This document shows positions 39,143 through 49,339 of a stretch of 64,000 nucleotides of DNA, piece by piece. The notes under the pieces are model-generated. The model did not search any database. It was not told the DNA's origin and worked only from the letters and a program-made list of their open reading frames with translations. Both the position numbers and the translations under genes were made by a program. How positions within the stretch are numbered: the stretch's first letter is position 1; the number at the start of each line of letters is the position of its first letter. This DNA is from Massilia rhizosphaerae (GTDB lineage Bacteria; Pseudomonadota; Gammaproteobacteria; Burkholderiales; Burkholderiaceae_D). The stretch is from positions 496,001 through 560,000 of the forward strand of contig NZ_JADKYX010000002.1 of assembly GCF_016093545.1 (NCBI RefSeq), written 5' to 3'.

Positions 39143-41227
39143 ATGCCAGCCACGAACGCGAAACCGGCGGCCAAAGCCGCAGCCAAGACAGCACCGAAAA
39201 GCATCGAGAGCAAGCTCGCCAAGCTCGGCCTGCATACCGACATGGATCTCGTGCTGCACCTGCCGATGCGCTACGAGGACGAGACCCAGATCGTGCCCAT
39301 CCGCGAAGCCTGCCTGCGCGGCGGCCACGTGTCCCAGGTCGAAGGCGTCGTGATCAAGAACGAAATCGCGTACAAGCCGCGGCGCCAGCTCCTGGTGACC
39401 ATCGCCGACGACACGTCCGACATCCAGCTGCGCTTCATGAATTTCTACGGCAGCCAGGTCAAGCAACTGGCCGAGGGCACGCGCGTGCGTGCGCGCAGCG
39501 AGGTGCGGCACGGCTTCTTCGGCGCCGAGATGGTCCACCCGGTGTACAAGATCGTCAACGAGGGCGCGCCGCTGCCCAACGCCCTCACGCCCGTGTACCC
39601 GTCCGGCGAAGGCCTGTCGCAGACGGTGCTGCGGAGGGCGATCGCGGACGCGATGAAGCGCGTGGACTGGACCGACACGGTGCCGCGCGCCGTGCGCGAA
39701 AAACTCAACCTGGCCGAGTTCCAGCCGGCCGTGCGCCTGCTGCACTACCCGCCGCCGGACGTCGACGAGCACGCGCTGACGGAGCGCACGCACCCGGCCT
39801 GGACCCGCGTGAAATTCGACGAGCTGCTCGCGCAGCAGCTGTCCCTGAAACGCGCGCAGCAGGCGCGCCGCGAAAAAGGCGCGCCGATCCTGGGCGCCGT
39901 GGGCGCGTTGTCTTCCGCATTCCTGCAGGCCTTGCCGTTCAAGTTGACCAATGCGCAGCAGCGCGTGGTCGAAGAAATCCGCCGCGACCTGCGCGAGGAC
40001 TACCCGATGCAGCGCCTGCTGCAGGGCGACGTCGGCAGCGGCAAGACGGTCGTGGCGGCGCTGGCGGCCGCGCAGGCCATCGACAGCGGCTACCAGGCCG
40101 CGCTGATGGCGCCGACGGAGATCCTGGCCGAGCAGCACTTCCGCAAGATCGCGGCCTGGATGGAACCGCTGGGCGTGAAGGTCGCGTGGCTGACGGGCAG
40201 CCTGAAAAAGAAAGAAAAGACGGCGGCCAGCGAAATGGCGGAGTCGGGCGAAGCGCAGCTCGTGATCGGCACGCACGCCCTGATCCAGGACTCCGTGCAA
40301 TTCGCGAAGCTGGGCCTCGTGCTCGTCGACGAACAGCACCGCTTCGGCGTCGGCCAGCGGCTCACCTTGCGCAACAAGGGCAGCGACGGCCTGGTGCCGC
40401 ACCAGCTCATGATGTCGGCGACGCCGATCCCGCGCACCCTTGCGATGACGTACTACGCCGACCTGGAAGTGTCGATCATCGACGAGCTGCCGCCGGGCCG
40501 CACGCCCATCGTCACGCGCGCCATCGACCAGAACCGACGCGACGAAGTCATCGAACGGGTGCACGCGGCCGCGCAGGAAGGCCGGCAGGTGTACTGGGTC
40601 TGCCCGCTGATCGAGGAATCGGAAGCGCTGCAGCTGCAGACGGCCACCGAGACCTACGAGACGCTGGCCGAAGCCCTCCCCGACCTCGTCGTCGGCCTCG
40701 TGCACGGCCGCATGAAGCCGGCGGAAAAGCAGGTGATCATGGATGCGTTTTCGGCGGGCGCGGTGCACGTGCTCGTGGCGACGACGGTGATCGAGGTGGG
40801 CGTGGACGTGCCGAACGCGTCGCTGATGGTGATCGAGCACGCGGAGCGCTTCGGCCTGTCGCAGCTGCACCAGCTACGGGGCCGCGTGGGCCGCGGCTCC
40901 GCCGCCAGCGCCTGCCTTCTGCTGTATCAGAGCCCGCTGGGCCCCGTGGCCAAGCAGCGCCTGATGACGATGCGCGAGACGACGGACGGCTTCGAGATCG
41001 CACGGCGCGACCTGGAGATCCGCGGTCCCGGCGAATTCCTCGGCGCGCGCCAGTCCGGCCAGGCGATGCTGCGGTTCGCGAACCTGGAGACGGACCAGTG
41101 GATCGTCGAACAGGCGCGCGACGTGGCGGCGTGGCTGCTCGGATCGGACCGGCCGGAGATGGAGGCGATCGTGGACGCCCACCTGCAGCGCTGGCTGGGC
41201 GGGCGCGAGGAATTCCTCAAGGTTTGA
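39143..41227 (+). CDS. recG: ATP-dependent DNA helicase RecG
   Basis: Branch-migration helicase acting on stalled forks and Holliday junctions. 694 aa. An Ala/Lys-rich N-terminal extension (residues 2-22) precedes the wedge domain. Helicase motifs: Walker A GDVGSGKT (about residue 295), DEQHRFGV (motif II, about 396), MSATPIPRTLAMT (about 423), TTVIEVGVDVPNA (about 550), QLRGRVGRG (about 577) and the TRG-like RRDLEIRGPGEFLGARQSG. ATG 39143 gives the N-terminus; the ORF has no clear earlier start. Confidence 0.97.
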   Translation: MPATNAKPAAKAAAKTAPKSIESKLAKLGLHTDMDLVLHLPMRYEDETQIVPIREACLRGGHVSQVEGVVIKNEIAYKPRRQLLVTIADDTSDIQLRFMNFYGSQVKQLAEGTRVRARSEVRHGFFGAEMVHPVYKIVNEGAPLPNALTPVYPSGEGLSQTVLRRAIADAMKRVDWTDTVPRAVREKLNLAEFQPAVRLLHYPPPDVDEHALTERTHPAWTRVKFDELLAQQLSLKRAQQARREKGAPILGAVGALSSAFLQALPFKLTNAQQRVVEEIRRDLREDYPMQRLLQGDVGSGKTVVAALAAAQAIDSGYQAALMAPTEILAEQHFRKIAAWMEPLGVKVAWLTGSLKKKEKTAASEMAESGEAQLVIGTHALIQDSVQFAKLGLVLVDEQHRFGVGQRLTLRNKGSDGLVPHQLMMSATPIPRTLAMTYYADLEVSIIDELPPGRTPIVTRAIDQNRRDEVIERVHAAAQEGRQVYWVCPLIEESEALQLQTATETYETLAEALPDLVVGLVHGRMKPAEKQVIMDAFSAGAVHVLVATTVIEVGVDVPNASLMVIEHAERFGLSQLHQLRGRVGRGSAASACLLLYQSPLGPVAKQRLMTMRETTDGFEIARRDLEIRGPGEFLGARQSGQAMLRFANLETDQWIVEQARDVAAWLLGSDRPEMEAIVDAHLQRWLGGREEFLKV

Positions 41228-41228
41228 T

Positions 41229-41292
41229 TGGTGGGCACGGTGTGCCCCTACCTGTTCCTCGTGGCCGTAGGGTGGGCACCCCGTGCCCACCA
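41229..41292. repeat. TAGGGTGGGC palindrome, inverted pair
   Basis: 41229-41251 (minus sense, beginning two bases after the recG stop) and 41267-41292 (plus sense). It separates convergent recG and the first Asr-like gene and has no better terminator nearby, so it may serve as a bidirectional terminator. Confidence 0.82.
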
Positions 41293-41296
41293 TGCA

Positions 41297-41563
41297 TCAC
41301 TTGCCCGCAGCCGGCGCCGTGGTATCGGCCGCCGCATCCTTCGCGGCTTCCTTCTGCTCGGCCTTGGCCGCGGCCTTCTTGTGGTGCTTGGCCTTCTTCA
41401 CATGCTTCTTGGTCGCCTTGGCTTCCTGCTTGTCGTGCGTCGCTTCGGCCTTGGCGACGGCCGGCGGCGTGGCCGAATCCGGGGCGGTCGCCGGTGCCGG
41501 GGTCTGGGCGAAGGCGGCGGTGGCGAACAGGCCGGCGATCAGGGTGGCGATGGTGTATTTCAT
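41297..41563 (-). CDS. Asr-like small secreted Lys/Ala/His-rich protein, copy A
   Basis: 88 aa. The Sec signal MKYTIATLIAGLFATAAFAQ is nearly identical to the three other copies in this window. The mature part is disordered and basic: TP/PA-rich start, then KKHVKKAKHHKKAAAKAEQKEAA and an acidic-Ala tail. Composition and layout recall the acid shock protein Asr of enterobacteria (periplasmic, Lys/His-rich, thought to protect at low pH). Start ATG 41563 behind AGGACC. The upstream operator array is shortened by the neighbouring gene. Function by analogy only. Confidence 0.8.
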   Translation of the reverse strand: MKYTIATLIAGLFATAAFAQTPAPATAPDSATPPAVAKAEATHDKQEAKATKKHVKKAKHHKKAAAKAEQKEAAKDAAADTTAPAAGK

Positions 41564-41647
41564 GATGAAGGGTCCTCGGTAGCGTTGGGTGTCGGTGATC
41601 ACGTTTGCGTATCACTTGTGCCTGAAAACGGCCCACCCCGCCGCCCT

Positions 41648-41672
41648 GTTGACGCGTTTTACAAATGCTTAC
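41648..41672 (-). promoter_or_regulatory. Response-regulator-like operator of Asr-like copy A (short form)
   Basis: On the minus strand: GTAAG-N5-TGTAAA-N3-CGTCAAC. Half-sites GTAA/GTAA/GTCA step by 9-10 bp. The proximal end lies 85 bp from the ATG. The distal GTAA overlaps the stop codon of the isonitrile-hydratase-like gene and the outer repeat seen in copies B-D is missing. Confidence 0.6.
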
Positions 41673-42349
41673 AGCGCGACCGTGTTCGCCAGCGCCGCCT
41701 CGACCCGCGCCAGCCGCGGCGCCTGCAACGCGCGCAGCTTGGCGACCAGCTCCGGGCCGGCGCTGTGCGGCGAGCCGGCGTCGAACGGCGGCTGCGGATC
41801 GTATTCGAGCGCCAGCTGGATCGTGCGCGCGACGTCTTCCCCGGCCAGTTCGGCCGCCAGCGCGAGGCCGAAGTCGATCCCGGCCGTCACGCCGCCGCCG
41901 GAGATCCGGTTGCGGTCGCGCACGATGCGCTCGGCCACCGGAATGGCGCCGAAGTGCTCCAGCAACGGCAACCACATCCAGTGGCACGCGGACCGATAAC
42001 CCGCGAGCAGCCCGGCCGCGCCCAGCACGAGCGAGCCGTTGCAGACGGAGGTGACGTAGCGCGCGCGGCCGCCCTGGCGGCGCAGGAAGGCCAGCGTGGT
42101 GGCGTCGCCGAACAGGTGCTCGATGCCGAAACCGCCCGGCACGCACAGCACATCGAGCGGCGGGCAGTCCGCGAACGTGGTCGTCGGATTGATCGTGAAG
42201 CCGACGTCGGTCGGCACGGGGTCGCACGTCTTCCACACGAGATGCACCTGGGCGCCGGGCACGCGGCTGAGGATCTGGGCGGGACCGGTGAGGTCGAGTT
42301 GGGTCACGTGGGGGAACAGCAGAAATCCGATGTGAAGGGGTGCACTCAT
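41669..42349 (-). CDS. DJ-1/PfpI family protein, isonitrile hydratase-like
   Basis: 226 aa, same length as the Pseudomonas putida isonitrile hydratase, which hydrates isonitriles to N-formamides. IGFLLFPHVTQLDLTGPAQ, FADCPPLDVLCVPGGFG and ARYVTSVCNGSLVLGAAGLL (catalytic Cys about residue 103), then SGGGVTAGIDFGLALAAEL, closely track that enzyme as I recall it. Start ATG 42349 (MSAPLHIGF) follows GGAGCC. Divergent from a GlxA-type regulator that presumably controls it. The substrate is inferred from the family; it could be another small amidase-like DJ-1 activity. Confidence 0.82.
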   Translation of the reverse strand: MSAPLHIGFLLFPHVTQLDLTGPAQILSRVPGAQVHLVWKTCDPVPTDVGFTINPTTTFADCPPLDVLCVPGGFGIEHLFGDATTLAFLRRQGGRARYVTSVCNGSLVLGAAGLLAGYRSACHWMWLPLLEHFGAIPVAERIVRDRNRISGGGVTAGIDFGLALAAELAGEDVARTIQLALEYDPQPPFDAGSPHSAGPELVAKLRALQAPRLARVEAALANTVAL

Positions 42350-42404
42350 GGCGGGCTCCGGGTCATTGTCGATGATGAATGACGCCATTCTAGGAATGGG
42401 CTAG

Positions 42405-42445
42405 CATTGGCAGCAATGTCAATCTTGTGTCGAATCCTGCCAATG
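42405..42445. promoter_or_regulatory. 9-bp inverted repeat in the divergent promoter
   Basis: cattggcag (42405-42413) and ctgccaatg (42437-42445) form a perfect dyad with a 23-bp centre. The right arm includes the start codon of the AraC-type regulator. Candidate operator for autoregulation and control of the divergent gene. Confidence 0.5.
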
Positions 42446-43435
42446 CCTTCCACATCCCGCCAGATCGCGCTGATCGCTTTCGACGACGTCCAGGTGCTCG
42501 ACGTCACCGGCCCCGCCGCCGTGTTCGGCGCCGCCAACGACGCCGCCATGCATCGCCTCGGCCGACCGTTCTACCGCATGCACATCCTGTCGCCGCAGGG
42601 CGGTCACGTGACGAGCAATTGCGGGCTGGCCGTCGTGACGGCGTCGCTGGCGAGCGTCAAGCCGGGAGCGCTGGACACCGTGCTGGTGGCCGGCGGCAGC
42701 AAGCAGGGCCTGCAGGCGCTCGCGCGCGACGCGGCGGCAAGCGCGTGGCTGCGGCGCGCCTGCGCGCGGGCGCGGCGCTACGGCTCCGTGTGCACGGGCG
42801 CCTTCGCGCTGGCCGCGTGCGGCCTGCTGGACGGCAAGCGCGTCGCCACGCATTGGGAGGCGACGGCCATCCTCGGCCGCAAGCATCCGGCCATCGAGGT
42901 CGACGCAAACGCGCTCTACGTGGAGGATGGCCGCGTGTGGACATCGGCCGGCGTCACCACCGGCATCGACATGTGCCTCGCGCTCGTCGCGCGCGACCTG
43001 GGCGACGCCGTCGCCAACGCCATCGCGCGCCGGCTCGTGCTGTACGCGCGGCGGCCCGGCTACCAGTCGCAGTTCAGCACCGTGCTGGCGGCGCAGGAAA
43101 AGGCGGACAGTCCGTTCGCCGACCTCGTCGACTGGATCCGCACGCACCTGGACGACACACTGGACGTGGCCGGCCTGGCGGAACGCGCGGGCATGTCGCC
43201 CCGCACGTTCCACCGCCGCTTCACGGACGCGCTGGGCGAGACGCCGGCGCGCTTCGTCGAGACGCTGCGCCTGGACCATGCGCGCACGCTGCTGCAGACG
43301 TCACTGGCACTGAAGACCGTCGCCGCGCAGACGGGTTACGGGACGCCGGCCCAGCTGTCGAAGGCGTTCGCGCGCCGCTTCGGCATCAGCCCCGGGCTGT
43401 TTCGCGCAATGCACCGCGACGCGGCGACGCCATGA
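42443..43435 (+). CDS. GlxA-family AraC-type transcriptional regulator
   Basis: 330 aa. N-terminal DJ-1/PfpI-like domain (IALIAFDDVQVLDVTGPAAVFG; GSVCTGAFALAACGLLDGKRVATHW with its Cys elbow) and C-terminal AraC double HTH (DTLDVAGLAERAGMSPRTFHRRFTDALGETPARFVETLRLDHAR; YGTPAQLSKAFARRFGISPGLFR). It shares fold ancestry with the enzyme it faces. ATG 42443 is preferred over 42407 because the domain starts right there. Ligand unknown; the likely target is the divergent isonitrile-hydratase-like gene. Confidence 0.88.
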   Translation: MPSTSRQIALIAFDDVQVLDVTGPAAVFGAANDAAMHRLGRPFYRMHILSPQGGHVTSNCGLAVVTASLASVKPGALDTVLVAGGSKQGLQALARDAAASAWLRRACARARRYGSVCTGAFALAACGLLDGKRVATHWEATAILGRKHPAIEVDANALYVEDGRVWTSAGVTTGIDMCLALVARDLGDAVANAIARRLVLYARRPGYQSQFSTVLAAQEKADSPFADLVDWIRTHLDDTLDVAGLAERAGMSPRTFHRRFTDALGETPARFVETLRLDHARTLLQTSLALKTVAAQTGYGTPAQLSKAFARRFGISPGLFRAMHRDAATP

Positions 43436-43460
43436 ATTGCCCGGGGCAAGCGGCCGAAAT

Positions 43461-43490
43461 GCGAAAAGCCCGCGTCGCGCGGGCTTTTCG
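43461..43490. terminator. Bidirectional terminator between the GlxA-type regulator and Asr-like copy B
   Basis: cgaaaagcccgcg-tcg-cgcgggcttttcg: a 13-bp perfect stem with A-tract and T-tract on opposite sides, serving both convergent genes. Confidence 0.85.
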
Positions 43491-43504
43491 GGGGGACTAC
43501 GGAA

Positions 43505-43816
43505 TTACTTGGCGGCCGGTGCCGGTGCCGGCTCTGCGGCGGCGACGGTCGTGTCCTTGGCGGCTTTCGTCTTCGCCACGTGGTGCTTGGCCTTGTGCTT
43601 GGCGTGCTTGGCGTGCTTGGCGCTGGCCTTGGCTTCCTTCGCATCGACCTTGGCGGCCTTCGCATCGGCTTTCGCTTCCTTCACGTCGGCTTTCGCCTCG
43701 GTCTTCACGGCGGCGGGCGTCGCAGCCGGCGTCGTCGTGGCGGCAGGCGCCGGGGCTTGCGCGAAGGCTGCGGTGGCGAACAGGCCGGCGATCAGGGTAG
43801 CGATGGTCTTTTTCAT
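43505..43816 (-). CDS. Asr-like small secreted Lys/Ala/His-rich protein, copy B
   Basis: 103 aa. Signal MKKTIATLIAGLFATAAFAQ, then APAPAATTT, a Lys-rich run of ADVKEAKADAKAAKVDAKEAK type, a His-rich core KHAKHAKHKAKHHVAK and a Pro/Ala tail ending APAPAAK. It is the most Asr-like of the four because of the histidines. ATG 43816 with AAGGACC. It has the full 44-bp operator array, 84 bp upstream. Mature part predicted disordered or single helix by composition. Confidence 0.82.
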   Translation of the reverse strand: MKKTIATLIAGLFATAAFAQAPAPAATTTPAATPAAVKTEAKADVKEAKADAKAAKVDAKEAKASAKHAKHAKHKAKHHVAKTKAAKDTTVAAAEPAPAPAAK

Positions 43817-43899
43817 GGTGAACGGTCCTTGAAGTTTGTCGGGGCAGTGCACGTCGTTTGCGTGTCACTTGCTCCTGAAACGCGGTCGGCCGGGTGGGT

Positions 43900-43943
43900 G
43901 TTGACGAGCTTTACAAACGCTTACCGTGCTGACAATTGCTTAC
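43900..43943 (-). promoter_or_regulatory. Response-regulator-like operator of Asr-like copy B
   Basis: Minus strand: GTAAGC, TTGTCAGC, GGTAAGC, TTTGTAAAGC, then CGTCAAC; half-sites GTAA/GTCA/GTAA/GTAA/GTCA at 9-10-bp steps over 44 bp. The proximal end is 84 bp from the ATG. Confidence 0.7.
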
Positions 43944-43985
43944 AAACTCCAGCGCGGAATCCGGGCGCTTGAGGGAATCTTGCAT

Positions 43986-44180
43986 TCACGTGGGGGCAGA
44001 ATCGTCGTCATTGGTCGAATCGAGTCCCCACTCCTGCCAATCATCGCCGAATAATTCGGCCGGGTGCTGCGTGCGCACCGAACCGTTTCCGCATGCGAGT
44101 GAATCCGCAGGGCAATACTTGTCACATCCCCAGCACACACGCTCCGGGTGTATTGGATGGATGGGAAATTTTTTAGCCAT
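43986..44180 (-). CDS. DUF3079 small cysteine-containing protein
   Basis: 64 aa, soluble. MAKKFPIHPIHPERVCWGCDKYCPADSLACGNGSVRTQHPAELFGDDWQEWGLD matches the short DUF3079 family: CWGC, then CP and CG, give four cysteines able to bind a metal, plus the conserved RTQHPxELFGDDW block. Function is not known. No clear Shine-Dalgarno is seen before ATG 44178-44180. It lies alone between two plus-strand genes, upstream of the copy B operator. Confidence 0.85.
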   Translation of the reverse strand: MAKKFPIHPIHPERVCWGCDKYCPADSLACGNGSVRTQHPAELFGDDWQEWGLDSTNDDDSAPT

Positions 44181-44352
44181 GCATGCAGTATATTGACCTG
44201 GGCAGTGAATTTCGTTGATCTAGGTTAACTCGGTCCGAAACCAATCAAGAATAGTAAATCGATTCATTGTGTCCCGTTTCTCGGAAATAAAGCCGTTACA
44301 TGAGCGACGTACAATCGCCGGGCTGCTGTTCAATTTCTCGTGCGAGGTCTCG

Positions 44353-45372
44353 ATGAAAGCGTTGACGTTCGGCGTCTTGCTTTTCGTAAAGGCGCATGCC
44401 GCCTATGCCGACGTGCCGTTGGCAGAAAATTTCATGGCGGCGCCTGACCGCATCGAATGGAACGCCGGCGCGTTGTACGACGGCCGATTCGAAGACGGCG
44501 CCGCGTTGGAGATCGAGGTCGCCTATCCGGCACCGGCAGGGGTGTCGAAGCGCGATGCCGACAGCTTCGTCCAGACGGTCTGGGAACCGCGCCATTACCA
44601 GGGCGAGCCGTCGCATCTGTTTGCCGTCGATGCCGTCGGCTCCAACATCCGCCTGAAAGTGCTGGATGAGCGCAGCGCGGAGAACGGCAGCATTTATACG
44701 ATCACGCTGGCGCCTGACCGCGCATCGGGCCAAGGCACCGTGACCGCGCCGGGCGGCAAGCCGCGTTCGTTCACCCTGCGACGCAGCGTGCCCTACACCG
44801 GCATCGTGGTGACGCGGCCTGCACCACCCGACCTGGCCGACAATCCCTACTACAAGCAAAACGGTTTCGTGTTCTCGGCCTTCTTCCCGACGCTGGGCGA
44901 TCCGGACGCGGACGCCTGGATCCGCCAACGGGCCGGCATCTGCCGCGACGAGGGCGAATGCAGGAACGATGTCCGTATCCGGTGGCGCTCGCGTTCACTG
45001 GTGTCGCTCATGGCGACGGTGTGGGGCGATTCGGGCGGCGCTCACGGCGACGGGCAGTTCGAGACCCGGCAGTACCGTATCGACGGCCGAACCATGACGC
45101 CACTCGGCCTGGACGCCTTCATCGACCTGGACGACACCTGCCGGGCGAAAATCTCGGCGTATCTGGTCGCCAGGCTGCGTGCGAAAGCGATGCCCAAGGC
45201 CGGAAGGGGCGGGTTGGACGGACGGGGCACAGTCCCGTTCACACCCACCTCGGGCGGTGTCGCCTTTCATTTCAATTTGTACGAGGTAGGCGGGTACGCG
45301 GATGGCACACCAACGGTGTTCGTGCCGCGCGCGCAGATGGGGACATGCGTGAAGTATCTGCCGGCGGATTGA
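44353..45372 (+). CDS. Secreted protein of unknown function, RsiV/DUF3298-like C-terminus
   Basis: 339 aa with a signal peptide (MKALTFGVLLFVKAHAAYA). The N-terminal half (about 20-170) is a beta-rich region I do not recognise. The C-terminal part has FVFSAFFPTLGDPDADAWIRQRAG, SLVSLMATVWGDSGGAHGDGQFETRQYRIDGRTMTPLGLDAFID and GGVAFHFNLYEVGGYADGTPTVFVP, with the Gly-Gly-Ala-His turn and beta pattern of DUF3298/RsiV-PdaC-type domains. Two Cys pairs may form disulfides. Start ATG 44353 after GAGG. It could bind glycans or another periplasmic ligand; no partner is adjacent. Confidence 0.7.
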   Translation: MKALTFGVLLFVKAHAAYADVPLAENFMAAPDRIEWNAGALYDGRFEDGAALEIEVAYPAPAGVSKRDADSFVQTVWEPRHYQGEPSHLFAVDAVGSNIRLKVLDERSAENGSIYTITLAPDRASGQGTVTAPGGKPRSFTLRRSVPYTGIVVTRPAPPDLADNPYYKQNGFVFSAFFPTLGDPDADAWIRQRAGICRDEGECRNDVRIRWRSRSLVSLMATVWGDSGGAHGDGQFETRQYRIDGRTMTPLGLDAFIDLDDTCRAKISAYLVARLRAKAMPKAGRGGLDGRGTVPFTPTSGGVAFHFNLYEVGGYADGTPTVFVPRAQMGTCVKYLPAD

Positions 45373-45440
45373 AGACGAGAGCCGTGGATGAGGCGTGGAA
45401 AGTACAGCATTCCGGGCCAAGCGACCCGGACGCCCTGTGC

Positions 45441-45632
45441 TTACCGGACTGCCCACACCTCGGCCGCCGCATGCGCAAAATCGTCGAAGCGACGGGCGGG
45501 CCGGCCGGTAATGCGCGCCATGGTGCCCGGTCACGCAGGATCATGCCGGCGTAATCGGCAGGCATGCTTGCCACGGCGAGCGTCGGGGCCGACAGCGCGT
45601 GAACCGCGTCCGCGCGCCGTCGGACGACGGAT
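45441..45632 (-). pseudogene. Remnant of an NAD(P)-binding (NmrA/SDR-like) oxidoreductase C-terminus
   Basis: In minus-strand frames the segment reads DAVHALSAPTLAVASMPADYAGMILRD and, after a frame change near 45530, MARITGRPARRFDDFAHAAAEVW with a TAA at 45443-45441. LTGRPPRxFxDFA-type endings are characteristic of NmrA-like NAD(P)-binding proteins. The rest of the gene is gone: copy C of the Asr-like family begins immediately upstream. No intact paralogue is in this window. This reading explains why the 260-bp gap looks coding but has no open frame. Confidence 0.55.
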
Positions 45633-46133
45633 TTACTGGGTGACGGGCGCGGCAGGCGCCGGGGCCGCTTCAGGTGCCGGGGCGGCCGGGGTCGCCGGAG
45701 TAGCCGGGGTGGCTGGAGTGGCTGGAGTGGCCGCATCGGCCGGCGCCGCAGCGGGTGCAGCGGGTGCAGCGGGTGCGGCCGGGGTCGCCGGAGCGGCGGG
45801 AGTTGCCGGCGTGGCGGCAGTTGCCGGAGCGGCTTCCGCCGCCGGCGTCGGCGTCGCCGTGGCGGCCGCGTCTTCCTTCATGGTCTCGGTCTTCGCGACG
45901 TGCTTGGCCTTGTGCTGCGCATGCTTGGCGCTCGACTTCGCGGCTTTGGCATGCGTCTTGGCCACCTTCGCATCGGCATGCGTCGTCGTCTCGGCTTTCG
46001 GTGCCTTGGCCTCGGCCTTCTCTGCCTTCAAATCCGCATTGTTGACGAGCACGGCTTGCTTGGCGCTGGGCGCCTGGGCGAACGCTGCGGTGGCGAACAG
46101 GCCGGCGATCAGGGTAGCGATGGTTTTTTTCAT
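45633..46133 (-). CDS. Asr-like small secreted protein, copy C, with long Pro/Ala/Thr tail
   Basis: 166 aa, the longest copy. Same signal (MKKTIATLIAGLFATAAFAQ), then a Lys/Ala part with ADAKVAKTHAKAAKSSAKHAQHKAKHVAK (about residues 55-85). A C-terminal half of about 80 residues is made of PA, AT and PAT repeats, similar to periplasmic spacer regions. The tail is encoded by short DNA repeats (gccggagtggctgga-like) and should vary in length between strains. ATG 46133 behind GAGGATCC; full operator array 84 bp upstream. Confidence 0.8.
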   Translation of the reverse strand: MKKTIATLIAGLFATAAFAQAPSAKQAVLVNNADLKAEKAEAKAPKAETTTHADAKVAKTHAKAAKSSAKHAQHKAKHVAKTETMKEDAAATATPTPAAEAAPATAATPATPAAPATPAAPAAPAAPAAAPADAATPATPATPATPATPAAPAPEAAPAPAAPVTQ

Positions 46134-46216
46134 GATGAAGGATCCTCTTAGGTTGTCGGTCCAGTGCACATAGTCTGCGTGTCACTTATCCCTTCAACGA
46201 GCCCTTCCGTCCGTCT

Positions 46217-46260
46217 GTTGACGCGCTTTACAAACGGTTACTGCGTTGACAGATGCTTAC
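46217..46260 (-). promoter_or_regulatory. Response-regulator-like operator of Asr-like copy C
   Basis: Minus strand: GTAAGC, CTGTCAACGC, AGTAACCG, TTTGTAAAGC, GCGTCAAC. Five GTMA half-sites at steps of 10, 9, 10 and 9 bp. On the plus strand the middle pair reads TACA-N4-GTTAC, close to the RstA box (TACATNTNGTTACA) as I remember it. Confidence 0.72.
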
Positions 46261-46328
46261 GCCGGCATCATCCGCGTTCCGCCGCCGGGACTTGTGGGAT
46301 GATTATTGTTTTCATATAACAATCCAAC

Positions 46329-47453
46329 ATGAAGTCAACTCATCATTTCGATGCGATCGTCGTGGGCGGCGGCCTGGCCGGACTGGCGATCAGCCGGCAG
46401 CTGCACGAGGCGGGCATCGGCGTCGTCACGCTCGAACGGCGCGCAGCGTTTGCGAACGAAGGTTTCGCCATCAATCTTCCCGGTAACGCGATTGCGGCGT
46501 TGCAGGAGATGGGACTCGGCGAGAGGATCGCCGGGATGGGCCGGCCGACCAAGCGGCGCGAATACCGCGACCATCGCGGCCGGATGCTGTTCGACATCGA
46601 CGAGGATGCGTTCTGGGGACAGGATTGCCGGCCCCGGTGCGTGAAGCGGAACGAGTTGATGGACTTGTTGCGCGACGGCCTGCCCGACTCGATGTTCCGC
46701 ATGTCGAGCCAGGTCGAGGGCATTGCGGCGGATGCGTCCGCGGTCACCGTGACGACCGCCGGCCAGCAGGCCTTCACCGGCCGGATCGCGATCGGCGCGG
46801 ACGGCGTGCATTCGCGCACGCGGGCACTCGTGTTTCCCGATGCGGCCACGCGCGCCGCCATGCTGTCCCCGTCGAGCTGGCGTTTCCTCGCGCCCGACCC
46901 CGGCATCGATTGCTGGACGGTGTGGGCCGGGCCGTCCGGGCTGTTCCTGCTGATCCCGCTGGGCAACGGCGAAGTGTATGGCTGGGCCAGCAGCGACGTC
47001 GACGGCAGCCACGGCCTCGCGCACGTGTTCCGCCAATTTCCGCCCGAAGTGCGGCGCACGGCCGACTTCCTCGACGCGCATCCCGGCAACATCCACCATT
47101 CCCCTCTCGAGGAAGTCCGGATACCGTCGTGGGGCAACGAGCGCGTCGTGCTGATCGGGGACGCCGCACACGCGACGGCGCCCGTCTGGGCCCAGGGCGG
47201 GGCACTGGCATTCGAGGATGCGAACGCGCTGTCCGGCATCCTGGCGGACGGCAGCGACTGGTCGCAGGCGGCGGCCCGCTTCGAAACGGTCAGGCGCCAG
47301 CGCGTCGCCCACGTGCAGGCGATGACGGACAAGATGTCCAGGGCTGCCCGCCTGCCGGCGGCCATCCGGAACCTGCTGCTGCCGTTCGTCGGCCCGAAGA
47401 ACTACCGGGCCACGTATGCTCCACTGCGCCCGGGACAGGTCGTCGCGGGCTGA
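46329..47453 (+). CDS. FAD-dependent monooxygenase
   Basis: 374-aa group A flavoprotein monooxygenase (PHBH-like). FAD motif GGGLAGLAISRQLHEAGIGVVTLER (residues 13-37), the DG motif IAIGADGVHSRTR (about 156) and the second FAD motif VVLIGDAAHATAPVWAQGGALAFEDANAL (about 272-300). Substrate not deducible; aromatic hydroxylases and salicylate/3-hydroxybenzoate-type enzymes share this layout. No catabolic partners flank it. Start ATG 46329 has only a weak Shine-Dalgarno. It is divergent from Asr-like copy C, with the operator array between them. Confidence 0.88.
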   Translation: MKSTHHFDAIVVGGGLAGLAISRQLHEAGIGVVTLERRAAFANEGFAINLPGNAIAALQEMGLGERIAGMGRPTKRREYRDHRGRMLFDIDEDAFWGQDCRPRCVKRNELMDLLRDGLPDSMFRMSSQVEGIAADASAVTVTTAGQQAFTGRIAIGADGVHSRTRALVFPDAATRAAMLSPSSWRFLAPDPGIDCWTVWAGPSGLFLLIPLGNGEVYGWASSDVDGSHGLAHVFRQFPPEVRRTADFLDAHPGNIHHSPLEEVRIPSWGNERVVLIGDAAHATAPVWAQGGALAFEDANALSGILADGSDWSQAAARFETVRRQRVAHVQAMTDKMSRAARLPAAIRNLLLPFVGPKNYRATYAPLRPGQVVAG

Positions 47454-47473
47454 GCGCGCGCCTGCGTAAACGG

Positions 47474-47500
47474 AAAAAGCCCGCATCGCGCGGGCTTTTT
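47474..47500. terminator. Bidirectional terminator between the monooxygenase gene and Asr-like copy D
   Basis: aaaaagcccgc / gcgggcttttt stem with a 5-nt loop, A-tract and T-tract on opposite sides; same design as 43461-43490. Confidence 0.85.
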
Positions 47501-47518
47501 GAAGTGCGGGGACCGGGA

Positions 47519-47830
47519 TTACTTGGCCGCGACCTTCGTGGCCTTGTGCTCGGCCTTCGCTTCCTTCACGTCGGCCTTGGCTTCCTTCTTGGTTTCCTTC
47601 ACGTCGGCCTTGGCTTCCTTCTTGGCTTCCTTCTTGGCGTGCTTCACATCGGCTTTCGCGTCCTTCTTGGCTTCCTTGACGTCGGCCTTGGCGGCTTGCT
47701 TTTCCTGCTTGGCTTCGACCTTGGCTGCGGCCGCGGTCTTGGCCGGGGTGGCGGCGGCAGGCGCGGGCGCCTGGGCGAAGGCAGCGGTTGCGAACAGGCC
47801 GGCGATCAGGGTAGCGATGGTCTTTTTCAT
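47519..47830 (-). CDS. Asr-like small secreted protein, copy D, 11-residue Lys-rich repeats
   Basis: 103 aa. Signal identical to copies B and C. The mature region is built of ADVKEAKKDAK-like units of 11 residues (one of 15), giving a highly charged amphipathic helix reminiscent of group-3 LEA proteins; it has few histidines compared with copies A and B. ATG 47830 behind GAGGACC, full operator array 85 bp upstream. The repeats are also visible in DNA as 33-bp units, so length polymorphism is likely. Confidence 0.82.
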   Translation of the reverse strand: MKKTIATLIAGLFATAAFAQAPAPAAATPAKTAAAAKVEAKQEKQAAKADVKEAKKDAKADVKHAKKEAKKEAKADVKETKKEAKADVKEAKAEHKATKVAAK

Positions 47831-47914
47831 GATGAAGGGTCCTCAGAGTGTTTGGGGTTCGGTGCGCGTCGTTTGCGCTGCACTTGTCCCTTAAACGAGG
47901 CGGCCCACCCGTCT

Positions 47915-47958
47915 GTTGACGGGCTTTACAATCGGTTACCGCGCTGACAGATCCTTAC
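47915..47958 (-). promoter_or_regulatory. Response-regulator-like operator of Asr-like copy D
   Basis: Minus strand: GTAAGG, CTGTCAGCGC, GGTAACCG, ATTGTAAAGC, CCGTCAAC. Same 44-bp, five-half-site design and the same distance (85 bp) to the ATG as the other copies. Confidence 0.72.
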
Positions 47959-47968
47959 ATCTCAGCCG

Positions 47969-48339
47969 TTAGAAGCCGTAACCGTGCCAGGCATCCTTGA
48001 ACTCGCGGGCGCGCGCATCGACGACTTCCGGCCGCGCGCGCAGCCACGCGATCACGGCCTCGCGGTCGTCCTCCGACGGCGAGCCACGTTCGATGCGGGC
48101 GACCACGCCTTCCGTCTCGCTGAACGGCTCGCGGCCGCCGAAGCCGCCGCCGAGCAGTCCCCGTTCTTCCAGTGCGCCGAAGAAGTCGTTGATGAAGTCG
48201 TGATACGGCGCGCCGCGCATCGGGCTGTGGAACACGAGTTCGACGTCGAAGCAGTGCTCGCGGAATTCGCCGACGCGCAGCTTCTTGCGCTGGCGGGCAT
48301 TCAGGCGCCGCATGCGGCTGGTCGAACGGGGATCGCGTT

Positions 48340-48343
<4 letters not shown>
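47969..48343 (-). CDS. yggL: YggL family (DUF469) protein
   Basis: 124 aa. MKRDPRSTSRMRRLNARQRKKLRVGEFREHCFDVELVF matches YggL: a basic N-terminus followed by LNxRQRKKLRVGEFxExGF and the FxxDFI-type block (HDFINDFFGALEERGLLGGGFG). YggL is reported as a large-subunit ribosome-associated protein. ATG 48343 behind AAGGAGAA. The start codon overlaps the stop of the upstream oxidoreductase gene in an ATGA junction, so translation is coupled. Last gene of the pyrC operon. Confidence 0.9.

Positions 48344-49339
<996 letters not shown>

What the first reader, a model, noticed from the sequence alone, without database searches (positions are those of the whole stretch)
41297..47958. Four interleaved Asr-like secreted proteins form a paralogous family with one shared promoter design
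Copies at 41297-41563, 43505-43816, 45633-46133 and 47519-47830 are all on the minus strand and separated by unrelated genes. They share almost identical signal-peptide DNA and a conserved leader (AGGANCC before the ATG; CAAGTGACACGCAAACG-like block about 55-60 bp upstream), but have divergent disordered mature parts: His-rich (A, B), PAT-tailed (C) and 11-mer Lys repeats (D). This looks like repeated duplication of a promoter + signal-peptide cassette with fast evolution of the cargo. Asr of enterobacteria is the nearest concept I know. A multi-member, co-regulated set would be a local periplasmic buffering, chaperone or desiccation system.
Basis: partly seen in the sequence, partly recalled or inferred. 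Interest (0 to 1): 0.85.

Follow-up and report, generated by a model that had tools for sequence, protein, structure and literature searches.

The report
Co-regulated secreted disordered stress-protein family
Four small secreted, lysine- and alanine-rich, probably disordered proteins of a Massilia-like bacterium belong to an expanded family that mostly carries its own DNA switch, which suggests a dedicated envelope-stress response resembling the acid-shock protein Asr of E. coli without detectable sequence kinship to it.

Summary
Four secreted Lys/Ala-rich ORFs (A-D) share signal peptide and promoter. The genome has two more members, and 37 of 37 same-genus genomes examined have the family. 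At ≤1 mismatch it occurs in 36 of 37 same-genus genomes; 57 of 58 sites precede a family-type secreted protein, and the control pattern has 1 site.

Interleaving is secondary: the copies form an old cluster between yggL and recG into which other genes came. Copies are orthologous between species, not homogenised.

Best reading: a lineage-specific set of cationic periplasmic disordered protectants, switched on together by an OmpR/CpxR/RstA-type response regulator. It works like Asr/RstA but is not an Asr member (no PF06392 match). The regulator is unidentified: the RstA-like orphan does not track the box; CpxR-like and OmpR remain candidates. The inducing stress is unknown.

The parts
41297..41563 (-). 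Copy A, 88 aa secreted; PDSATPPAVAKAEATHDKQEAK..., His/Lys-rich
41648..41673 (-). Response-regulator-type box of A (TGTAAGCATTTGTAAAACGCGTCAAC), 0 mismatches
41590..41615 (-). 5' leader hairpin of A, predicted -7.0 kcal/mol
43505..43816 (-). Copy B, 103 aa secreted; Lys/Ala/His-rich
43900..43943 (-). Half-site array of B (box core 43900-43925 plus upstream GTAAGC/GTCAGC half-sites)
43843..43868 (-). 5' leader hairpin of B, predicted -7.3 kcal/mol
43457..43488 (-). Terminator-like inverted repeat after B, 88% identical to the one after D
   Evidence: repeat D13; terminator reading is mine, the scan does not list it
45633..46133 (-). Copy C, 166 aa secreted; KQAVLVNNADLK motif and long PAT-rich tail
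46217..46260 (-). Half-site array of C
46160..46185 (-). 5' leader hairpin of C, predicted -4.9 kcal/mol
47519..47830 (-). Copy D, 103 aa secreted; 11-residue Lys repeat
47915..47958 (-). Half-site array of D
47858..47883 (-). 5' leader hairpin of D, predicted -8.4 kcal/mol
47468..47499 (-). Terminator-like inverted repeat after D
   Evidence: repeat D13; terminator reading is mine, the scan does not list it

Best explanation
A-D, and E elsewhere in the genome, are members of one expanded, lineage-specific family of small secreted, disordered, cationic proteins that are switched on together by a two-component response regulator of the OmpR/CpxR/RstA type. The phosphorylated regulator would bind the GTAA/GTCA half-sites about 10 bp apart and recruit polymerase to a weak core promoter (CGTTTTNTGCTCAG or CGTTTNAGGNACAAG). 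The mRNA would begin with a short hairpin and be translated from AGGANC; the protein would leave through its common signal peptide and act in the periplasm as a disordered cationic protectant (anti-aggregation or buffering polymer), as reported for E. coli Asr. The paralogues would supply different polymers: His-containing A and B, PAT-tailed C, LEA-like 11-mer D. Shown by computation: family, box, its near-privacy to the family, hairpin covariation, old cluster. Inferred: class of regulator, transcription start, export, periplasmic protectant role. Unknown: which regulator, which stress.
For: Family in 37 of 37 same-genus genomes. Box in 36 of 37, 58 sites against 1 control site; 57 of 58 precede family-type secreted proteins (50 by profile coordinates; 7 by reading). 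All 3 box sites of G061, a genome of another genus, precede family members. Of 174 distinct copies 92 have the box and 34 lie directly downstream of another family gene. The 10-bp direct-repeat geometry equals the RstA core TACANNNNNNTACA read on the other strand (PMC4117788, passages). Leader hairpin: natural mean -7.2 kcal/mol against -4.7 for half-swapped chimeras, reached in none of 200 permutations per cut. Cationic, and free of aromatic residues and Cys in 160 of 169 members. Asr is annotated as a periplasmic chaperone and described as a disordered chaperone (PMC10746267, passages).
Against: No expression data. No regulator found: the RstA-like orphan is absent, at the threshold used, from G061, which has the box, and has no GTAA-N6-GTAA site upstream in 22 of 22 orthologues; none of 23 own regulator promoters scores near the box (best -3.1, training boxes at least 17.6). 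F-type members (37 of 174) have no box and a different promoter, so the family is not under one switch as a whole. One same-genus genome, G030, has members but no box at ≤1 mismatch. One of 58 sites (G008) precedes nothing recognised. No sequence kinship to Asr. Disorder is inferred from composition and a low-confidence model (mean pLDDT 59, which also shows one long helix).
Confidence: 0.5

Rival explanations
1. The set is a desiccation or osmotic protection system: periplasmic LEA-like proteins whose 11-residue repeats fold into helices on drying, with OmpR as the likely regulator, rather than an acid or misfolding response.
For: D has Lys autocorrelation 0.68 at lag 11 (maximum of 500 shuffles 0.38); C 0.31 and F 0.33 also exceed their shuffle maxima (0.25, 0.22). 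The D model is one low-confidence helix, residues 32-102. The own genome has a clear OmpR (421 bits, cut-off 331).
Against: A, B and E do not exceed their shuffles for Lys at lag 11. No LEA model among the Pfam matches of the six members up to E 5. Lysine excess and His in A and B fit Asr-like roles as well.
Confidence: 0.2
2. The regulator is the CpxR-like response regulator and the set belongs to a Cpx-type envelope-misfolding response.
For: CpxR-like L149 is in 21 of 23 same-genus genomes, and all 21 orthologues scanned have a GTAA-N6-GTAA site upstream, 19 of them at -65 to -67: the geometry of the family box. PMC7083825 (passages) reports acid activation of E. coli CpxRA and a GTAAA-(5 nt)-GCAAA site called similar to the known CpxR site.
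Against: Not found at E 1e-60 in G016 (100% complete), which has family and box. Its own site reads GTAAA...GTAAA without the TGTAAG first half and the GTCAAC third half that the family boxes keep. G061 was not tested for it.
Confidence: 0.2
3. The proteins are unrelated low-complexity ORFs that acquired similar leaders independently.
For: The mature parts have biased composition and much of their similarity could come from that.
Against: Copies keep orthologues with the same cargo in the same cluster; orthologous cassettes are closer than paralogous ones; box and hairpin are conserved across species and in a second genus.
Confidence: 0.03

Closest known systems
Asr, acid shock protein (PF06392) of enterobacteria, activated through RstA
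   Same: Small, exported, Ala/Lys/Pro/Thr-rich, cationic, no aromatic residues or Cys; direct-repeat box with TGTA units 10 bp apart.
   Different: No PF06392 match; pairwise BLASTP finds only 5 residues and profile comparison only the signal peptide. Many paralogues instead of one gene. In E. coli asr the box reads TACATATCGTTACA in the direction of the gene, the opposite orientation to the boxes here, which also keep a third unit GTCAAC.
CpxR-type boxes
   Same: Direct GTAA half-sites 10 bp apart; the CpxR-like gene of this genus has such a site itself.
   Different: Family boxes keep TGTAAG first and GTCAAC third; sites found at ≤1 mismatch are nearly confined to one protein family (57 of 58).
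LEA group 3 proteins (11-residue repeats)
   Same: D has an 11-residue Lys periodicity and a predicted long helix of low confidence.
   Different: Exported by a signal peptide; no LEA model matched; A, B and E lack the periodicity.

Membership tests
Asr (PF06392) | Match to the curated Pfam model | tested here: not met
   No Asr match for any of 6 members up to E 5; positive control E. coli Asr E 2.2e-12
Asr (PF06392) | Small exported protein, cationic, rich in Ala/Lys with His, Pro, Thr, no aromatic residues | tested here: met
   A-D pI 9.2-9.9, aromatic plus Cys 0; Asr pI 10.5. Export is by signal-peptide appearance only
Asr (PF06392) | RstA-controlled promoter | tested here: inconclusive
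   Box geometry agrees, but the RstA-like regulator does not track the box and binding is untested
Asr (PF06392) | Strong induction by acid | not testable with these tools
   No expression data
Asr (PF06392) | Disordered chaperone activity | not testable with these tools
   Only composition and a low-confidence model
LEA group 3 | Match to a LEA model | tested here: not met
   No LEA family among Pfam matches of the 6 members up to E 5
LEA group 3 | 11-residue repeats | tested here: inconclusive
   Clear in D, weaker in C and F, not in A, B, E for Lys at lag 11
OmpR/CpxR/RstA-type regulon | Direct half-sites 10 bp apart in front of the genes | tested here: met
OmpR/CpxR/RstA-type regulon | Identified cognate regulator | tested here: not met
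   No own regulator promoter carries the box; RstA-like does not track it; the Metal_resist-linked regulator is in only 6 of 37 same-genus genomes; CpxR-like and OmpR remain open

The most novel reading that the evidence does not exclude
A dedicated signal-transduction output made almost only of disordered protein: one response-regulator box whose strong sites, over a genus and in a second genus, nearly all lie in front of one family of secreted disordered polymers. The paralogues would give the periplasm a tunable mixture of chaperone, buffer and spacer polymers, each mRNA opening with a co-varying 5' hairpin.
Probability: 0.3. Interest if true: 0.75.

Novelty: new variant of a known kind. 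Interest (0 to 1): 0.55.

Why it matters
The family is in every same-genus genome examined (37 of 37), yet the members tested match no Pfam or NCBIfam model. The box gives a handle to find the set and its regulator. If the reading is right, Asr-like disordered periplasmic protectants arose more than once and can be expanded into a multi-polymer response, so that the role of disordered periplasmic proteins can be tested by comparing natural paralogues under one switch.

Tried and rejected
Asr membership: rejected (control). LEA membership by model: rejected. PhoB-type box: rejected by spacing, 10 and 9 bp here against 11 (PhoB consensus recalled). RstA-like orphan L141 as the regulator: tracks the family within the genus (22 of 23 genomes, 0 of 14 of other families), but in the order sample it is in 4 of 4 same-genus genomes, 0 of 6 of other genera of the family (G061 with its three boxes included) and 14 of 290 others (only 9 candidates per genome were scored). 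Metal_resist-linked regulator as general regulator: rejected (6 of 37 same-genus genomes, 45 candidates scored per genome). Regulator next to the family: 21 own regulators against 76 named loci hit only three of these loci, all with that one type; a further 22 loci gave nothing beyond that regulator's own locus. Gene conversion: rejected. Mobility: no plasmid match for the C leader or protein D. Rfam: nothing at gathering score in 41200-48200. Sigma-70 scan: 0 sites, shuffles 0.5; terminator scan 7 sites, shuffles 7.4, none at the repeats after B and D. PDB sequence search with the D profile: 2 matches, E 0.9. Exact TGTAAGNNNNTGTAA in the own genome: 3 sites (A, E, and one near the 3' end of F), control 1.

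Literature, open-access library only: no paper holds the signal-peptide string. The search on acid shock protein with genus names found 607 papers with at least 2 terms; the 12 listed hold no 'acid shock protein' (listing only). No paper held 4 of 5 terms on Asr, RstA and Burkholderiales. Searches were listings; of these papers I saw passages of PMC4117788, PMC7083825 and PMC10746267. None of what I saw describes this family.
Full report
What is there. The four ORFs are at the stated coordinates. Each has a signal peptide of the type MK(K/Y)TIATLIAGLFATAAFAQ followed by an Ala/Lys-rich stretch. A-D match nothing with significance in Pfam or NCBIfam, and the six own-genome members nothing in Pfam. 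The mature parts of A-D are cationic (pI 9.2-9.9) without aromatic residues or Cys.

Family. An alignment profile finds six members in the own genome: A-D, E at C1:59620-59955 and F at C12:167746-168144. In the 61-genome sample 37 of 37 same-genus genomes (own included) match, with 1 to 8 members each, and 3 of 24 genomes of other families match weakly. In the named collection 359 stretches matched the one pattern used, 180 were confirmed, the best 80 were kept (76 loci); 100 confirmed stretches were not seen. The named loci are labelled Massilia, Telluria, Duganella, Pseudoduganella, Janthinobacterium, Rugamonas, one Herbaspirillum, and some MAGs or strains named only at family level or above.

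Synteny. In the window D, C, B and A lie in this order from yggL (47969-48346) to recG (39143-41227). L024, L085 and L214 hold D, C, B, an extra A-like copy and A in this order between the same genes; L026-L029 hold D, C, A (L026 with the extra copy) without B; L215 and L216 repeat the arrangement of L027 and L028 and may be the same genomes; L080 holds D and C. L037, L049 and L217 hold an A-like and a D-like copy, in L037 and L049 with the A-like copy next to yggL, so the order is not universal. In L025 D, C and B are there but the recG side was not fetched. L024 and L085 have D, C and B in direct tandem, without the DUF3298 and FAD genes that separate them in the window. The interleaving is thus best read as other genes lying within a tandem cluster. 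Over 35 copies of 9 genomes, orthologous pairs differ by 2.3 of 60 signal-peptide bases, same-genome copies by 5.4, non-orthologous pairs of different genomes by 5.5: no sign of homogenisation, and duplications older than these species.

Box. Aligned leaders show half-sites such as GTAAGC, GTCAAC, GTAACC, GTAAAG, GTCAAC at steps of 10, 9, 10, 9 (C). Over 57 distinct boxes the conserved core is NGTAAG....TGTAA[A/T]G..CGTCAAC. Copy E has it with one extra base. Of 174 distinct family copies 92 have a box (up to 3 substitutions), 34 lie directly downstream of another family gene, 37 are F-type with another promoter, and 11 are left over, most of which read as further downstream cistrons or degenerate boxes. 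TGTAAGNNNNTGTAANNNNNGTCAAC with ≤1 mismatch has 58 sites in 36 of 37 same-genus genomes; the reversed control pattern has 1. 50 sites lie 68-108 bp before a profile-found member; 7 more precede a related signal-peptide protein, six of them PAT-rich; one, in G008, precedes nothing recognised. In 300 genomes of the order the box is in 3 of 4 same-genus genomes, 1 of 6 genomes of other genera of the family, and 1 of 290 others, where the control has 3 sites. All three sites of G061, the genome of another genus, precede family members by 77-80 bp.

Leader. About 17 bases after the box comes CGTT..., then CTCAG or ACAAG, then a block that folds as a small hairpin. For 84 leaders the mean energy is -7.2 kcal/mol; swapping the 3' halves between leaders gives -4.7 (-4.6 to -4.7 for three cut points, 200 permutations each, none reaching the natural value) and shuffling -3.5. 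The leaders are related, so the z of about -12 overstates the evidence; still, different stems occur (CACG/CGTG, CGGGA/TCCCG, GTAGC/GCTAC, GTGCAAC/GTTGCAC; CCTCA/TGAGG in G061, read by eye). Two of 84 do not fold. A dyad read by a DNA-binding protein is not excluded.

Regulator. The 10-bp direct repeat is the geometry of the OmpR/CpxR/RstA group; PMC4117788 gives the RstA core TACANNNNNNTACA (passages). The own genome has 23 matches to the DNA-binding domain. Of ten regulators scanned with NCBIfam only L141 matches RstA best (221 bits, cut-off 330), L149 matches CpxR best (227, cut-off 341) and L136 is OmpR (421, cut-off 331). L141 has no kinase recognised beside it among the ORFs of at least 200 aa. 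It is in 22 of 23 same-genus genomes and 0 of 14 others, but not in G061, and 22 of 22 orthologues lack a GTAA-N6-GTAA site upstream. L149 is in 21 of 23 and 2 of 14; 21 of 21 same-genus orthologues scanned have such a site. A third regulator (L133) is divergent from the cluster in L050, L055 and L065; in L050, the one read in full, a Metal_resist/LTXXQ protein and a histidine kinase go with it. It is in only 6 of 37 same-genus genomes. No regulator is proven.

Function. By composition and export the proteins resemble Asr, which RefSeq calls a periplasmic chaperone and which PMC10746267 (passages), citing Ren et al. 2022, describes as a disordered chaperone taking about 2% of ribosome-profiling reads at pH 4.4. 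D differs by an 11-residue repeat and a low-confidence helix, which recalls LEA group 3. The most likely role is a mixture of disordered periplasmic protectants made together under an envelope stress. Stress and action are inferred.

Verdict. A real, conserved and, as far as my searches show, undescribed family with a largely private promoter design; an analogue of Asr, not a member.

Noticed in passing
L011:1177-1731 (copy F) and 37 F-type copies in the fetched loci: F-type members (at least 150 aa, KADPEDK-like motif) lack the box; 34 of 37 share another promoter-like pattern, [G/T]AACAGA or [G/T]ACAGA, then TATTCT: a second control circuit for the same family.
   Followed up: partly
L050:3563-5792; own genome L158 (C57): An operon of a Metal_resist/LTXXQ periplasmic protein, a response regulator and a histidine kinase lies divergent from the family cluster in L050. 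Five of six same-genus orthologues scanned have a GTAAAG-N4-TGTAA site upstream; the own genome has TGTAAAGCG repeats there.
   Followed up: partly
L022, L023, L077, L079, before downstream copies of tandem arrays: Many intercistronic stretches hold an inverted repeat like AATAAACCGTTTATAT shortly before the next copy.
   Followed up: no
L155:3514-4200 (own genome C3): RstA-like response regulator without a kinase recognised nearby, in 22 of 23 same-genus genomes.
   Followed up: partly
41669-43435: Two DJ-1/PfpI-domain genes side by side, divergent, one with an AraC-type HTH; the pair is kept beside copy A in most of the syntenic loci.
   Followed up: no
L005:1452-1520 (own genome C3:170634-170651): GTAACCCATTGTAA and a 2-mismatch box core lie before a gene for another apparently secreted protein: possibly a further target, or chance.
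   Followed up: no
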